From positions 310,001-374,000 of the forward strand of contig JAJKFJ010021420.1 in the NCBI GenBank assembly GCA_027382625.1: a stretch of 64,000 nt of DNA, in the 5' to 3' direction. Made by a program: the position numbers and the translations under genes. Source of the stretch: Tetmemena sp. SeJ-2015 (lineage: Eukaryota > Ciliophora > Spirotrichea > Sporadotrichida > Oxytrichidae). Position 1 is the first letter of the stretch. Every line of letters begins with the position of its first letter. Shown piece after piece: positions 12,201-24,872 of this stretch. The notes below the pieces were generated by a model. The model made no database searches, was not told the origin of the DNA, and saw nothing but the letters and a program-made list of their open reading frames with translations.

Positions 12201-14986
12201 AACTGGCTGCAAATCTCTAGTTATCACAACAATCAGAGACATGTCACACCTCATAGAAATCGAAAGACAAAATTAGATCATTACTACTTATCATAACTTC
12301 ATATTTAGACAATAAAGCTTGACCTTGTTCAAGACTTAAGCTTTCGCTTCAGCTGCTCATGAATTCAGAAACCCCTTAAGTGCTATCATTCGCTCTCTAG
12401 ACTTGATGGAGAACTATGTTGACACCTCTCGAGTAGGTCTCTTCTATATGACGGCTAAAAGTTGCTCCAAGCTCATGCTCTATCTAGTTAACGATATTTT
12501 AGATTACTCACAACTAGAATCCAAGAAGCTTCACACAAATCCAGAGATAGTCAGTATTGACAAAGTTTTGAAGGAATGTATAGGGATTCTTAAGTTTAGA
12601 GCAGAAGAGAAGGGGCTAGAACTCAGCTACGATATTCTTCATAGAGAGTCTTTCAAATTTAGGTATTTTACATGCGTTAATATTTTTCCTAATTTATGAC
12701 TGATGAAAACAGGCTGAGATAGATTCTTATTAACCTCATCTCCAACGCTATTAAATATACCCACAGAATGTTATAGCTTTCTAATGCTTTCGAATATTTT
12801 AAACAGAGGCTTCGTGAAGATTACGGCTTCTCTGAATAATATAACTCAGACTGTTGAGATAGATGTGGAGGATTCAGGAGTGGGAATAGATGAGAATGAT
12901 TAGGCTATGCTCTTTCACGCCTACTGTAAAATCATGAAGAACAGAGATCTCAATAAGGAGGGCTGCGGCCTCGGCCTTACTATCTCACGAAATCTGGCTG
13001 AAGTTTTGGGAGGCTCGATTACTGTCTAATCAAAAGTGGGTGTGGGCTCAAAGTTTTCACTAGAACTGCCCAGTAATCTGGAAAAGCAAGACTTTGAAGG
13101 AGCTAGAAACCCACTTTTTACCAATAAGATGAGATCAAAGCCTGAGACTACTCATTAGGAAATAGAATTGGAATTTGAATAGTAGGTTTTATAAGGATAT
13201 TTTATATATGATTCAAATAATATGATATATTTTCTCTAAAAGTCCATAATAAAAACCAAGGAAGCAGTCTGTCTAGTTTCAGAATCCATAGAGAAGATTT
13301 TCCAAGAACAATTTTAAGCTTAGCAAATGTATGTATTCTAGATATCTATGTATCTTAGCAGCTTTTAGTTAAGAGACTCTAAAACTTTTGGTCCGGATTC
13401 AAAACCTCAATCCATTAATACTATATTTTAATCCGATAACGTAAACGATGACTCACGCTCAGCTTTTCGGAGAAACCTATTTGATCATCTCCATGATAGT
13501 AACCTAGTCTTAAGCGACCTAAACTACACCCCTGAAGTGATGGATGAGCAGTTAATTTATCAATTAAATGAAATTACTAAACTCATTTTTGCAGATAAGT
13601 ACTTTTAATAGCATTAGGAAAAACTCGATAATCGGGAGCAGAATACCTCGATAGGTTCACATACAATCATAGTAAAGCTTAACTATTCAAAATAACTCCT
13701 CTATACTCAGGTTGCCAGCTGTGTAAGAGGAATTGTGCTCAAGCTAAGAATCAAGAATTCAAAGTCCAATAAGTGAAGTGAATATAAGGTGTAGAAGCCT
13801 CTCCTCCTAAGTTTAATCTTGCACTCATGCAAGAGTGCTCATAGTTGATGATGACCCTTTTAACACCGTCGTTAAAATAAGACTATATAACTCTTTATTT
13901 CAAAGTCTTGAATAATTATGCTGATTGTCGCTGGCATGCTATAGCAGCTCGGACTTTAAACAGTTGATCGATGCTTCGATGGTTAAACAGCAATACATAT
14001 AATCTAGCAATTTTTTTATCTCATTTGAATACAGAGGATGACAGAGAACTATCAGATCTGCTTCGAGTGCAACTTCCTCACTCCTCGTATGCAGTCAAAG
14101 TGCTACCAGCATATTCCTTACACTTTTTATAACTTTGTAGTTTCGATTTTTTATTCCCTACAACCTTATCATAATAGACAATTAAATGCCCCAAATGACG
14201 GGAATATAGCTGGGTAAAATTTTCAGAGAGAAACAAGAAAAGGGAGAACTGGGATAGTAGACTGAGATCATGCTTTTGACAGGAGTTGTTTAATTTAAAT
14301 TTTATTTAATTATTAAATTAGAAAGTTAAAATTCAGGACGCACACGACCGGCACTAGGCACCGGTCGCCCTTTCCCAGAAGGCTTTCTGGTTTGGTAATC
14401 CATTGGCTGGTGGGTGAGTGCTTAAAAAAGGCAAGGGATAATGGCAGCCGAAGCCCTGGGGAAGGTGGTGAGCTGCTCACTGGAGAGATAATCAAAGGTG
14501 AGTGGTTCCCACTCACCTCCTAATCCTTGTAGGCGTGGAGGGACGAGATCTATGGGCAAACACTCAGTCATGCAGCTGGACAGCGAAGCCAGACGCTACG
14601 GAGCAGCGACTTGCTCTCGGTCCGAAGCTACCGGATTTTTTTTCTCCTTTTAGGTTTTTTTTGGATGGTTTGCAGAAGCAGGGGGCTTCTGCTCAGAGTG
14701 TGAGGTGGCGGGGGTGCCACGTGCTTAATATCCCTATTCGGCTGGTAGGTTTGTGTGCGTCAGATAAGTGCGTCACAGCAATATCATTGACGTCACGGCC
14801 TATCTTATTTATGCCGGGGCCCTTTAATTCCCTTTAATTCCCTTTAATTATAAATTTTATTTAGAGATGAGAGACTTATAGAAGACTCAGAGGCACAACA
14901 AATTTTCGATTATAAACCTTATGCCTTAGTTTAAATTAATTTAAACTTCTGAAATAGTTGTCCATTTGCTTTTAATTATTTTGTGA
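9235..14986 (+). CDS. Hybrid histidine kinase with C-terminal receiver domain
   Basis: A membrane-type N-terminal region of about 1.2 kb leads to a HisKA domain with H-box AHEFRNPL, an N-box RLRQILINLISNAIKYT, G-boxes DSGVGIDE and GCGLGLTISRNLAEVLGG, then a receiver domain (VLIVDDDPFN; DNQMPQMTG around the phospho-acceptor Asp; LLTG). This is a two-component phosphorelay sensor (family knowledge). IESs with checked pointers lie at 9406-9583, 12656-12696, 12763-12807, 13978-14040 and 14119-14161; more must exist between 9700 and 11600. A SINE-like element sits at 14309-14850 close to the 3' end. The frame after it is open to TGA 14984-14986, but the expected Lys-Pro of the receiver domain is not obvious, so the C-terminus is uncertain. 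Confidence 0.8.
9406..9583 (+). other. IES, pointer AAAATCATTT
   Basis: Perfect 10-bp repeat at 9406-9415 and 9574-9583, 168 bp apart. The insert contains an in-frame TGA. Excision joins NLYSFKII to YCILKFEANL, which then stays open. Confidence 0.6.
12656..12696 (+). other. IES, pointer AATTTA
   Basis: AATTTA at 12656-12661 and 12691-12696, 35 bp apart. Excision joins ESFKF to MTDENRLRQIL just before the N-box. Confidence 0.88.
12763..12807 (+). other. IES, pointer ACAGA
   Basis: ACAGA at 12763-12767 and 12803-12807, 40 bp apart. Excision joins NAIKYTH to RGFVKITASL inside the kinase ATPase domain. Confidence 0.92.
13978..14040 (+). other. IES, pointer GATG
   Basis: GATG at 13978-13981 and 14037-14040, 59 bp apart. 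Excision joins KQLIDAS to MTENYQICFECN in frame. Confidence 0.7.
14119..14161 (+). other. IES, pointer TAC
   Basis: TAC at 14119-14121 and 14159-14161, 40 bp apart. Excision joins CYQHIPY to NLIIIDNQMPQMTG, rebuilding the receiver phospho-acceptor strand. Confidence 0.82.
14309..14850 (+). mobile_element. SINE-like retroelement, copy 1
   Basis: A 542-bp GC-rich block in AT-rich DNA, flanked by a perfect 13-bp duplication TAAATTTTATTTA (14296-14308 and 14851-14863). There are no terminal inverted repeats. It starts ATTATTAAATTAGAAAG and ends in three copies of a CCCTTTAATT tail unit. Strong hairpins lie at 14345-14367, 14497-14517 and 14672-14692. A tail repeat plus duplications of different length in the two copies points to target-primed reverse transcription. 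No convincing pol III A/B box and no protein of its own were seen. It lies in the same reading frame as the end of the histidine kinase. Confidence 0.78.
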
Positions 14987-19584: not shown

Positions 19585-20518
19585 ATGGAAAGTTCCGGAC
19601 CCCACCTACGCTGGCTCGGCCATGCAGGCTTCAGACTCCAATTCTTATTTAAATCACAACAATCATAGGCAGACATAAATTTCAATTTTTGAAGGTTTAA
19701 ATTCTAGGACTCATAGGATGCCAGCAAGACTAGAGTAGTCTATTTCGACCCATGGATTGCAGGCAACCCTAAACTGCCAGCTGACTTACAAGGCACTATG
19801 CCAGATGACGCAGATCTAGTGCTGGTCTCTCATGGCCATTTCGATCATGCAGGTTCGGCTCCAGACATCATCAAGGGCTCAAAGAAGGCGGAGCCTAAGG
19901 TCGTTTCAAACTACGAGATCTTCACATTCTACAAGACTCACCATGGACTCACTGATGCCCATGCTATCGGTATGAACAAGGGAGGCGCCGTTGATTTGGG
20001 CTGGTGCAACATCCAAATGGTGGGCGCTGATCACTCTTCAGGATGTCTGGCTCCCGATCAACACCTGACTGTAGGAGGAGAGGCTGCTGGCTATGTGTTC
20101 TCAGCTCACGATTTCGCCATCTATCACGCTGGTGACACCAATGTGTTCTGCGACATGGAAATCATCAACTATCTCTATAAACCCACTCACCTTCTCCTTC
20201 CCATTGGAGGTCACTTTTTTGTTAGAGATTTTATGCAGAATATTAGAATATAACTTCACAATGGGACCAAGAGAAGCTGCATTGGCTATTACCAAGTTCT
20301 TAACTCACGCTTCAGTTGTGATCCCCATGCACTACGGCACCTTCCCTCTCTTGAAGGGCACCCCAGAATAACTCCAAGAAGAAGTCAACAAACTCAAGGC
20401 AGAGTTCAAGAGAGCTGATTTCAAGCTAGTTGATCCCCACACCCTTCAGGAGAAGGACTCTCTTCTTCCATTTTTATTAAAAACTATGAAAGATACTAAT
20501 TAAGTTCTTCCTAAGTGA
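19585..20518 (+). CDS. Metallo-beta-lactamase-fold hydrolase (UPF0173/UlaG-like)
   Basis: MESSGPHLRWLGHAGFRLQF opens the fold. The zinc motif SHGHFDHAG (HxHxDH) is present, followed by GADHSSG, IYHAGDTN, LPIGGHFTMGPREAA and IPMHYGTFPLL, as in the single-domain UPF0173 family of metal-dependent hydrolases. The substrate is unknown. The family is mostly bacterial, but two IESs (19648-19702, 20213-20256) and TAA/TAG Gln codons show this is a ciliate gene. About 290 residues after joining; no signal peptide seen. TGA at 20516-20518. Confidence 0.88.
19648..19702 (+). other. IES, pointer TTTAAAT
   Basis: TTTAAAT at 19648-19654 and 19696-19702, 48 bp apart. It carries an in-frame TGA. Excision joins FRLQFLFK to FQDSQDASKTRVVYFDPW. 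Confidence 0.88.
20213..20256 (+). other. IES, pointer ACTT
   Basis: ACTT at 20213-20216 and 20253-20256, 40 bp apart. Excision rebuilds GGHFTMGPREAA. Confidence 0.92.
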
Positions 20519-20892: not shown

Positions 20893-23800
20893 ATGATATC
20901 TGCCCCAACTACCAAAGAATCAAACCTGAAGAGTGTCTAAGAGCTTACTTAGCAACAAGTAGCTGATATTTCCTTGAATCAAAAGAGCTAAGCATAAAAA
21001 GGGCAGTATTCAAAGCCTTTATTTGCGAAGGCTGCTGTTAAAAAAGGACTGCTGAGAAAAGTAAAGGAAGCAGCAGTCTAGCTCATCAAGCACACTCATA
21101 GGAAACCATGAACAACAATTTGCAGTCAGACCACTAAGAATTGCATCACATGGAAGATCATGATAAGAATGACTAGAATAATCATTAGAATGAGATAGCT
21201 AACTTTTCTAATGGAGACAGCACTCTGCACGAGATTAATATTCAAACTATCTAGGACACTAGAGCTTGTTCTAATTAATGTTTTATGCGTTTTAAGCTTC
21301 CAGGAGATCCCCTGAGGTCTTTAACATTAATGAAACTGCAGAAGGCCATTATGATGAGATTATTATAGACGATTCAAATGGGGAGGAAATGCAAGATTCG
21401 CTTCCAAATCTGGATCAAAGTCAAATCAAACTCCCGCAGAAGTCCAACCTAGATTAATCTAAAGCTCCTAATAAAGATTAGAAGTAGGGAATGCACGACC
21501 CAAGTTTAGCTTCTCCTTTGATTCTTAAGGTTCGCAGAAGCTTGATTAAATTTTAAGCTTTTTTAAGATTTTCGCTTGAAGGACTATAGATACCGAATGA
21601 CTACACAGATCACTATCAAGAGAATCAAGTCTATCAAAGGAACACCAGGGGAACCATTTCAAACAAGTCAAGCAAATCCCAAGCGAGTAGAAAATCAAGG
21701 AAGTCCAAAAAGAAGAACCACAATCAACAGTAACAGATTACTCAACCTTGGGAGATTTATGATAAGAATATGCTCGTGAAGTAGTAGCAATAGAAAGAAG
21801 AGAGGGGACTTCAAGCGTCTTATACAAAACTAACTAAGAGTAATAAAAACCTCTTGATGAATAGTCAAGATCAGAGCAGTTACTCGCAAAGAAGCAGAGG
21901 AAAAAATTAGAATACTCAACCATCAAACGACAACAAGATTATAAAAATTGAGAGTGAACTTTGAATTTAAAGTTTATTTAAAGACCGTTAGGTCTAGAAC
22001 TTAGCTTTAGGAGGATAGTAGTAAAGAGATTTAAGAAGAGGAAGAGGACGACTATCCAGGATTCCATTAGTAAAGACCAAACCAATCTTATATGACTATA
22101 TAAGATACTACTCATTTGAAGAGTGCAGACATTTCTACTGTAAACTACAAGACAATTTAAAACAACAACTCAGCTTTAGGAGACTCCTAATAAAGCTCTT
22201 TAATACTTAAGAAGGGCGATGGTCTGACGATGATGAATTAAACTTCCTAAGATTTCACTATTTTCTCAACTAAACTTAACTCCAGCATACATCATCATTA
22301 AATGCCCTCCACATCTGCTCAAGTTAAAAGGCAGTCACTTTAAAATCCTGCTATTAAATCTAACAAGCCAAGATTCTCTTAGACTATATCACAATTTTAG
22401 ACTTCTATATCCTATAATAATTAAGGGAATTAAGGGCCCCCGGCATAAATAAGATAGGCCGTGACGTCAATATATTGCTGTGACGCACTTAACTGACGCA
22501 CACAAGCCTACCCGCCGAATAGGGATATTAAACACGTGGCACCCCCGCCACCTCACATTCTCAGCAGAAGCCCCCGGCTTCTGCAGACCATCCAAAAACT
22601 AAAGAGAATAAATCGGTAGCTTCGACGAAACAGTCGCTGTTCCGTAGCGTCTGGCTTCGCTGTCCAGCTGCATGACTGAGTGTTTGCCCATAGATCTCGT
22701 CCCTCCACGCCTACAAGGATTAGAGAGGTGAGTGGGAACCACTCACCTTTGATTATCTCTCCAGTGAGCAGCTCAACCACCTTCCCCAGGGCTTCGGCTG
22801 CCATTATCCCTTGCCTCTTTTAAGTACTTACCTACCAGCCAATGGATTACCAAACCAGAAAGCCTTCAGGGAAAGGGCGACCGGTGCCTAGTGCCGGTCG
22901 TGTGCGTCCTGAATTTTAACTTTCTAATTTAATAATACTTCTATATCCTAGTTTTCAAGCCAGCAATCCTAAAAATTGAAGGCTCTTAAAGAAGAAAGAG
23001 AAAAAGAACCTCCCTATTTTAACCCAGTGGGTCCAGGTTAGTATGATGTGCGGGGAAAACTTGATATCGGAAACAAGACCCTCGTGTAATTTTATTAAAA
23101 CACTCCATAGTATTCATTTCCCAAGTAGAGATACCCCAACAAAGATGAACTCATAGAGCTTCAATAACAAGAAAGAAAATCTAGACAGCAAGGAGTTCAG
23201 CATTCGAAAGGACTTCTGTATATGCAGCAGAGGATGAAAAGTTAGACGAAGAAACTAAGCGAGATCAATCCTAAGTTTGAGAAGGTAATGGAGAAATCTT
23301 ATTTGTGGTATTTTTTTCATTTTTTGTATCCCCAGATTGGAGATTCGGTAGTCAACAACGCGGAGAGCTTTTCCCAGTTCCAGAGCACATTAGAAATGCG
23401 TAAATTCCATTTCCATCTTTATTTTATCTCTTATAGTCCTCATTCTTTACTAAGCTCCTCTGTCGATTGGCAAATGAGAAGTACCACTAAAGTTTATTCC
23501 TTCCCTAAGGATAGAAAGTTCTATGATTTCAATCAATAATTTTATAAATAATATAAAAGAATTTAATTACTCTAATATTTATTGATGAAAATAGTTTATC
23601 TTTTATAAATTTATTTATCAAAGAAAGTAGTCCTTAGAGAATCCAGAATATATAAAAGCTTAGTCAAGTCTGGACTATAGTTAGTTATCCACAAGCTAAC
23701 GACGAAGAATATATATTTTTTAGCGACACTAGTTTTTGTTATAGTTTGAAGTTTCTATGATTAATTTCATAACTGTAAGTTTAAATTGCTTTGACTTATC

Positions 23801-24349
23801 TTGACTAGAAAGCATGAGATTGAGTGGGGTGGCCTCTTCCTTCGGAAAGGAGAAACGAGACAAGCTTAGACTCTACCACCCAGACTTCAAATACGATAAC
23901 CTTAACGGGGAGACTGAGAGTCCAGGCCCGGCTGTTTACGATCCACTCAGAACCATCAGTTTTAAATTTTATCTATGCTATAATTAGAAAAATAATTTGC
24001 TCAGTGCACTTGGAAAAGCTAGTCATCTCTCTTTCCCCAAAGTCTTTTAAATTAAATTAAATTAAATAGTCATTTCATATTAAGAACTGACAATTTTAAA
24101 AGCTAATCGGCGGCTTGACCCTAAGAGCATTTCTTTGAGCGCCAGTAAGATGGCAGCCTTGCCGGGGCCAGACTAGTACTACTCCGAGATAGCAGAGAAG
24201 AGTATAATTATCAGAGATCCTCAACCTGCTTTTTCCAAAGCTCCCAGAAGAGTGGACATGCGTCTCTGTAAGTTTTATTAAAACTTTATAATGTTTGCTT
24301 TATAGATGACTCAAAGAACTTAGCCATTCTCGAGAGAGGACTTTATTGA
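20893..24349 (+). CDS. PG-rich repeat (STPG/ODF3-like) ciliary protein
   Basis: A long low-complexity N-terminus (Q, N, S, K, acid) leads to repeats with Pro-Gly-Pro and Tyr: PYFNPVGPGQYD, ESPGPAVYDPLRT and ALPGPDQYY. This is the pattern of sperm-tail PG-rich repeat proteins, thought to line axonemal microtubules (family knowledge). Breaks: IESs at 21263-21299 and 21959-22008, a SINE-like element at 22415-22936, introns at 23285-23335 and 24268-24305, and others between 23600 and 24100 not placed. An A-run at 21040-21045 probably lacks one base: VKKGLL versus a frame that leads straight into MNNNLQSDHQE. TGA at 24347-24349. Confidence 0.72.
21263..21299 (+). other. IES, pointer AGCTT
   Basis: AGCTT at 21263-21267 and 21295-21299, 32 bp apart. 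Excision joins IQDTRA to SRRSPEVFNINE. Confidence 0.85.
21959..22008 (+). other. IES, pointer CTTT
   Basis: CTTT at 21959-21962 and 22005-22008, 46 bp apart. Excision joins IKIESEL to QEDSSKEIQEEEEDDYPG. Confidence 0.82.
22401..22950 (+). other. SINE insertion bounded by a pointer-like duplication ACTTCTATATCCTA
   Basis: The 14-bp target duplication is at 22401-22414 and 22937-22950, 536 bp apart. Removing one copy plus the element joins FSQTISQFQTSIS to QFSSQQSQKLKALKEE in one open frame. The element therefore sits inside coding sequence and must be removed from the soma, or the gene is dead. Confidence 0.85.
22415..22936 (-). mobile_element. SINE-like retroelement, copy 2
   Basis: Reverse-orientation copy of the element at 14309-14850, 522 bp, with several substitutions and small indels. 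It begins at the same 5' base pattern (ATTATTAAATTAGAAAG read on the minus strand) and ends in two tail units instead of three. Flanked by a perfect 14-bp duplication. The hairpins GGTGAGTGG/CCACTCACC and GCAGAAGC/GCTTCTGC are kept, which suggests the RNA fold matters. Both copies look full length. Confidence 0.82.
23285..23335 (+). other. Intron, 51 nt
   Basis: GTAATGG..TATCCCCAG. Removal joins INPKFEK to IGDSVVNNAESF. Confidence 0.65.
24268..24305 (+). other. Intron, 38 nt
   Basis: GTAAGTTTTATT..GCTTTATAG. Removal joins VDMRL to YDSKNLAILERGLY and stop. Confidence 0.75.
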
Positions 24350-24872
24350 GGACATCAAGCAACCACTTAAAATTCATATGAATTCCTTAGAATCTTATAT
24401 CACAAGCCATGATGCATCAAACAGACAACAATCTAATCAATAATTTCATTTAGTTAAATTTCTACCCTTTTTGCATTTTGTGACTACTTCACCTCGAGAG
24501 TCCTGATTAATTAAATTGTGGAGTTAGTGCTAATAAATTAACATCTAAGTTTAAATAAATAATAATATATAAATAGATAGATTGATTGATTGATTTATTT
24601 ATTGATTGATAATGCTATGATTTTTATTTTTCAATTCTATTTGTCGATTTTATTTTAAGTTTTGGTTAGTTGTATCCTATATAAAATAGCACATCTAGTG
24701 GGCAGTTAAAGATCGCTAGCAAATATAAACCCGCATTTCTTAATAATTTATTTCTTCAAAGCTTAATAAAAAAGTTAAAAAAAAAATAAATAAAGATAAC
24801 TTATTTTATTGATGCAAGCTAATAAGTTAAACCAAAGAAGAAAAGAAAAAAAACAAAGAGAAATAGAACACC
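24350..24872. other. AT-rich spacer
   Basis: 3' flank of the STPG-like gene and 5' flank of the chromodomain gene; holds a GATT-rich patch near 24585-24610. No gene seen. Confidence 0.5.

What the first reader, a model, noticed from the sequence alone, without database searches (positions are those of the whole stretch)
22401..22950. A SINE-like element sits inside a coding sequence and its target duplication can act as an IES pointer
A 522-bp element interrupts the STPG-like gene. It is flanked by the perfect 14-bp repeat ACTTCTATATCCTA. Deleting one repeat plus the element gives one open reading frame on both sides with no residue lost. Target-primed retroelement insertion makes just such a repeat, so the duplication could be used at once as a pointer. 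This would be a route by which IESs are born from retroelements, whereas the IES origins I know of involve Tc1/mariner-type DNA transposons.
Basis: partly seen in the sequence, partly recalled or inferred. Interest (0 to 1): 0.92.

Follow-up and report, generated by a model that had tools for sequence, protein, structure and literature searches.

The report
Retroelement inserted in a ciliate gene
A short copy-and-paste element sits inside a protein-coding gene of a ciliate's germline genome, and the duplicated target it made could let the cell cut it out precisely when it builds its working nucleus, which would be a way for removable germline DNA to be born from retroelements; the removal itself has not been seen.

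Summary
A 522-bp element (22415-22936) lies between perfect 14-bp repeats; without the element and one repeat, one reading frame runs through. New here: (1) the same assembly holds another germline haplotype (C971) that lacks exactly these 536 bp and keeps one repeat: an insertion polymorphism. (2) The element is one of at least 268 copies with a (TTA)n tail and target duplications of 11-18 bp at 32 of 48 sampled copies, the marks of target-primed reverse transcription. No Pol III promoter above chance was found, so 'SINE-like' is the safe name. (3) Of 35 copies that could be scored, 4 interrupt a coding frame that continues in phase (focal, L029, L036, L081); 3 more lie inside short pointer-flanked interruptions of genes. 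No empty allele of L081 was found. (4) The host genes at the focal, L029 and L036 sites show purifying selection on both sides of the junction. No somatic DNA or RNA was available: excision with the duplication as pointer is inferred, not shown, and a broken allele masked by an intact one is the main rival. If excised, this is an IES born from a retroelement, a new variant of transposon-derived IESs.

The parts
22401..22414 (.). Left copy of the 14-bp target duplication ACTTCTATATCCTA, the proposed pointer
   Evidence: single copy in the empty haplotype C971
22415..22936 (-). SINE-like element; head at 22936, (TTA)n-type 3' tail at 22415
   Evidence: family and tail; window copy 26 substitutions from a 27-copy consensus; G+C 0.498 against 0.356 in the window
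22937..22950 (.). Right copy of the target duplication
21990..23300 (+). Host coding segment of the STPG-like gene (element 22415-22936 excepted) that the insertion interrupts
   Evidence: the only database homolog P0001 aligns from about 22 residues downstream of the junction
20900..24427 (+). Approximate extent of the STPG-like gene, several coding segments; extent inferred from the coding model and not otherwise tested
14309..14839 (+). Second copy of the family in the window, with 13-bp target duplication at 14296-14308 and 14851-14863

Best explanation
A member of an abundant family of short non-autonomous retroelements was inserted by target-primed reverse transcription into a coding (macronucleus-destined) segment of an STPG-like gene, making a 14-bp target duplication. 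Shown: insertion, duplication, coding position, germline polymorphism, family. Inferred: in the developing macronucleus the element is cut out with one repeat copy by the existing IES machinery, the duplication acting as pointer. In Oxytricha, maternal small RNAs mark the DNA to be kept, so an insert absent from the old macronucleus would be deleted by default and needs no excision signal of its own.
For: Frame and codon pattern across the junction: 14 synonymous and 8 non-synonymous differences between C971 and the window over 675 bp, other frames 5/17 and 2/20; one coding segment across it. No stop or frame-breaking indel in the STPG coding segments compared among the three haplotypes. Three further in-phase exonic copies (L029, L036; L081). 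L081 has no empty allele in the assembly. Exonic copies are not younger than others: private substitutions 2, 4 and 4 in L029, L036, L081 against 0-13 in 40 non-exonic copies. No significant avoidance of coding DNA: 6 of 35 sites against 43 of 174 control positions, P = 0.39. Short pointer-flanked interruptions exist in genes here. Precedent: TBE excision removes one target repeat and restores frames (PMC3731211, passages); maternal 27-nt RNAs protect retained DNA (PMC7599177, passages). DDE_3 transposase matches: 150 scored of 921 candidates.
Against: No somatic DNA or RNA. Three of the four exonic sites (focal, L029, L036) have an empty allele that could supply the gene. The window/C4953 comparison cannot prove constraint after insertion because C4953 looks mosaic. 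The family of the host gene is conserved only downstream of the junction. The element is G+C-rich, unlike the short AT-rich interruptions.
Confidence: 0.64

Rival explanations
1. An ordinary gene-breaking insertion that is not excised: a null allele, tolerated because an intact allele or paralog supplies the macronucleus.
For: Empty alleles exist at three of four exonic sites and at 8 of 13 loci examined. Polymorphic, low-divergence copies fit recent insertion.
Against: The focal insertion is on two haplotypes with 7 shared differences from consensus, 5 of them seen in no other of 27 copies. No stop or frame-breaking indel in the occupied haplotypes. L081 has no empty allele in the assembly. 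At L029 it is the empty allele, not the occupied one, that shows a 1-bp gap in the frame, though this may be a sequencing error.
Confidence: 0.22
2. The element landed inside a pre-existing very short, in-frame IES and is removed with it, so the pointer is the older one and not the duplication.
For: Three other copies (L019, L032, L065) do lie in short interruptions of genes. At the focal site a 21-bp in-frame segment bounded by TTTT spans the target.
Against: Such repeats span 383 of 400 random positions, so they say nothing. The nearest difference between C971 and the window at the focal site is TAA/TAG, both Gln (sequence reading). At L029 the changes beside the junction are synonymous.
Confidence: 0.1
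3. The insert is removed from RNA as a spliced intron (introner-like).
For: Introners also create duplications in exons (recalled; no call).
Against: No 536-bp removal beginning GT, GC or AT and ending AG or AC restores the frame exactly; the repeat holds no GT or AG. Exonic copies lie in both orientations to their genes: L029 differs from the other three.
Confidence: 0.04

Closest known systems
TBE elements of Oxytricha (Tc1/mariner), precisely excised from genes
   Same: Germline insertion in coding DNA; one copy of the target repeat is kept on excision and frames are restored (PMC3731211, passages).
   Different: TBEs are DNA transposons with telomere-like inverted repeats, a 3-bp ANT duplication and their own transposase. 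This element has 7 of 30 matching bases between its ends, 11-18 bp duplications, a (TTA)n tail and no transposase.
Mobile IES families of Paramecium and the IBAF model
   Same: Families of homologous non-autonomous inserts colonising exons (PMC8354472, passages; PMC8384191, first of two parts).
   Different: TA-bounded, tied to Tc1/mariner-like transposons; the words retrotransposon, non-LTR and SINE do not occur in the text held of PMC8354472.
Retroelements in other ciliate germlines
   Same: Putative SINEs and LINEs in Paramecium germline DNA (PMC5405496, passages); some Tetrahymena IESs resemble non-LTR elements (PMC3731211).
   Different: The passages seen do not describe exonic insertions with the target duplication as pointer; most Tetrahymena IESs are removed imprecisely and rarely interrupt exons. 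Blepharisma keeps retroelement sequences in its somatic genome (PMC9942856, passages).

Membership tests
LINE-mobilised short element (SINE-like) | Target duplications of variable length | tested here: met
   11-18 bp at 32 of 48 sampled copies; 4 more of 9 bp are TAA-rich and may be chance
LINE-mobilised short element (SINE-like) | Variable simple-repeat 3' tail, shared with a LINE | tested here: met
   Variable (TTA)n-type tail; two LINE 3' ends stop at a TTA-rich tail. The bodies share no sequence, so the partnership is inferred
SINE in the strict sense | Internal Pol III promoter; tRNA, 5S or 7SL head | tested here: not met
   A and B boxes no better than shuffles; no tRNA; one Rfam match only, far below its cut-off
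IES | Flanked by a direct repeat that can serve as pointer | tested here: met
IES | Interrupts macronucleus-destined coding DNA | tested here: met
   destination inferred from coding
IES | Absent from somatic DNA, one repeat kept | not testable with these tools
   No macronuclear sequence of these loci was found in the assembly
Tc1/mariner (TBE or Tec) | Terminal inverted repeats, ANT or TA duplication | tested here: not met
   7 of 30 end bases match; 14-bp duplication
Introner | Splice sites that remove the insert exactly | tested here: not met

The most novel reading that the evidence does not exclude
A recently active family of LINE-mobilised short retroelements is seeding new IESs in coding exons of a spirotrich germline. 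Each exonic insertion is born with an 11-18 bp pointer and is deleted at once by the maternal-RNA-guided machinery, while occupied and empty germline alleles still segregate.
Probability: 0.53. Interest if true: 0.82.

Novelty: new variant of a known kind. Interest (0 to 1): 0.63.

Why it matters
Where IESs come from is an open question; the model in print derives them from Tc1/mariner-like transposons whose own enzyme first excised them (PMC8384191). An element with no excision function that becomes an IES on arrival would mean that this kind of genome editing accepts any insertion that brings a target duplication. The paired occupied and empty alleles make that testable with a few PCR primers.

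Tried and rejected
Macronuclear origin of the empty copy: rejected. C971 differs from the window by 435 substitutions in 12,514 aligned bases spread over the alignment, is otherwise collinear, and keeps the short interruption in the MBL-fold gene, which could, however, also be read as an intron. At L019 the empty contig C504 keeps a short pointer-like interruption. Constraint after insertion from window versus C4953 (16 synonymous, 11 non-synonymous, pN/pS 0.18): not used as proof, since 89 of 101 polarised differences fall on C4953, which suggests a mosaic. Age from the window copy: its 19 private changes lie mostly in one cluster, read as gene conversion or an assembly patch. Homologs of the L029 gene: none at E <= 0.01. 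Pfam: nothing for L029, one sub-threshold match for L036. 'GH25' for the L019 gene is my reading; Pfam and PDB gave nothing for its pieces. A first coding model was dropped because it did not learn TGA as a stop. The first 40 scored copies were picked by similarity to the window copy and the second set by an intact head, so the sample leans to full-length young copies. The reversed control for the C4A4 pattern reads the same as the pattern, so it controls nothing.

Full report
What the genome is. The window is C2499:310001-374000 of a 146-Mb, 5213-contig assembly. The genes examined read with code 6 (TAA and TAG as Gln). The 20-base motif C4A4C4A4C4 occurs 67 times, at base 1 of 9 contigs, and a TTAGGG/TTGGGG-type pattern 0 times. 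This fits a spirotrich, probably hypotrich-like; the species is not identified. Genes carry short pointer-flanked interruptions. In L032 a pterin-binding domain and a segment that aligns to methionine synthase 9ssp from its residue 611 are separated by about 50 bp bounded by AAT. Removing one repeat and the insert gives the contiguous protein, while a GT-AG intron there leaves a stop (sequence reading). So I take the long contigs as germline DNA.

The insertion. Element 22415-22936 lies between perfect 14-bp repeats. A 300-bp left flank finds four places: C2499, C3698 (identical over the 3 kb compared), C4953 (98.7%, element present) and C971 (95.4-95.7%, element absent). In the alignment of C971 with 13.2 kb of the window the one large difference is the 536-bp absence; next come 44 bp in a simple-repeat stretch and 13 bp in the short interruption of the MBL-fold gene. 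C971 keeps one repeat. The insertion is therefore polymorphic among germline haplotypes.

The family. The element gave 702 first-look candidates, of which 40 were scored; all 40 full-length matches are 92-100% identical. A 31-bp piece of the head matches 268 places with at most one mismatch, 0 for the reversed control. I examined 48 copies: 28 with long flanks and 20 with shorter ones, some cut by contig or request limits; the focal insertion on C4953 and the duplicate contig C3698 are not counted. A duplication of 11-18 bp was found at 32 of 48, and a 9-bp TAA-rich one, possibly chance, at 4 more. One end is constant in most copies; the other is a variable (TAA)n or AATTAAGGGG-type repeat. 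Read on the minus strand the element ends in (TTA)n. Of 14 reverse-transcriptase matches I fetched the 3' sides of two; their shared sequence stops at a TTA-rich tail and is otherwise unlike the element. This is the anatomy of LINE-type target-primed insertion.

Is the site coding? A three-periodic model trained on the window and fetched loci scores 21990-23300, without the element, as one coding segment. C971 and the window differ by 14 synonymous and 8 non-synonymous changes over 675 bp in this frame, against 5/17 and 2/20 in the other two. Right of the junction the count is 8/0, left of it 6/8, so the left side is the weaker part. Over the whole gene pN/pS is 0.17 (57.5 and 36.5 changes). 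The single homolog P0001 (369 aa, SHIPPO repeat below its cut-off) aligns only from about 22 residues downstream of the junction. No ATG lies between the junction and the conserved domain (sequence reading). If the element stayed, the frame would end at TGA 22494.

Other copies. Of 35 copies that the model could score, 4 are coding in phase on both sides. Focal, L029 and L036 have positive phase scores of 1.7, 2.9 and 3.1, while the other sites of that set lie between -3.7 and -1.3. L081 has both flanks scored coding and one open frame, but a neutral phase score of -1.5, so it is the least certain. At L029 the occupied and empty alleles differ by 43 synonymous and 7 non-synonymous changes in the frame that crosses the junction; at L036 by 11 and 5. 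The L029 empty allele also has a 1-bp gap 213 bp from the junction, which breaks its own frame or is a sequencing error. Three copies (L019, L032, L065) lie inside short interruptions where the two flanking frames agree only when the small interruption goes too; for L065 this is a reading without the empty allele's letters. The other 28 were not assigned to an exon. By the looser rule, both flanks over 0.7, 6 of 35 sites are coding against 43 of 174 control positions taken from the first set's flanks (P = 0.39): no significant avoidance, with small numbers and an AT-rich target preference that could hide a trend.

Empty alleles. Joined flanks of 10 loci and 2 loci were searched in the genome. 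Full-length matches were found for L019, L023, L026, L029, L036 and L065 at 90-97%, and for L025 at 80%, perhaps a paralog. None was found for L032, L038, L040, L042 and L081. With the focal locus, 8 of 13 have an empty relative; the sequences of six besides C971 were read.

How it most likely works. Shown: insertion, duplication, coding position, polymorphism. Inferred: precise removal in the developing macronucleus with the duplication as pointer, as TBE excision keeps one target repeat (PMC3731211), with maternal small RNA protecting only DNA present in the old macronucleus (PMC7599177). No somatic molecule was seen, so this stands at about 0.64.

Literature. Seven searches listed no paper on a SINE or LINE insertion in a hypotrich exon removed with its target duplication as pointer. 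Seen: passages of PMC9942856, PMC5405496, PMC3464196, PMC9797194, PMC3731211, PMC8354472, PMC7599177, PMC5182062; abstract and one results section of PMC10901763; first of two parts of PMC8384191. Only open-access papers are held, so absence is weak evidence.

Noticed in passing
L079 (G000:C1728:65930-67395): A copy lacking about 90 bp of its tail side is flanked by a duplication of about 130 bp in a cathepsin-like gene; unlike the usual short duplications.
   Followed up: partly
L085 about 1030-1100 (G000:C3247): The TTA-rich end of a LINE directly abuts an FN3-like open frame, so a LINE too may sit in or beside coding DNA.
   Followed up: no
L019/L041 and L018/L020: Pairs of copies share one flank and differ in the other: recombination between copies or chimeric assembly.
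   Followed up: no
window 22600-22645 and 22724-22726: Clustered differences of the window's copy from the C4953 copy, while 22131-22400 and 22937-24500 show none: gene conversion or an assembly patch.
   Followed up: partly
G000:C770:1-20: Contig with the empty site for L023 starts with exactly 20 bases of C4A4C4A4C4; it may be macronuclear or a chromosome end.
   Followed up: partly
L065 (G000:C209): The element appears to sit in a 17-bp interruption with pointer TTCAT, most of which became its target duplication.
   Followed up: partly
window 20215-20253: Short interruption in an MBL-fold gene, 13 bp longer in C971; readable as an IES (pointer CTT) or an intron.
   Followed up: partly
G000, C3698 and C2499: C3698 looks like a contained duplicate of the end of C2499: identical in the 3 kb compared, and the offset fits the contig lengths.
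   Followed up: partly
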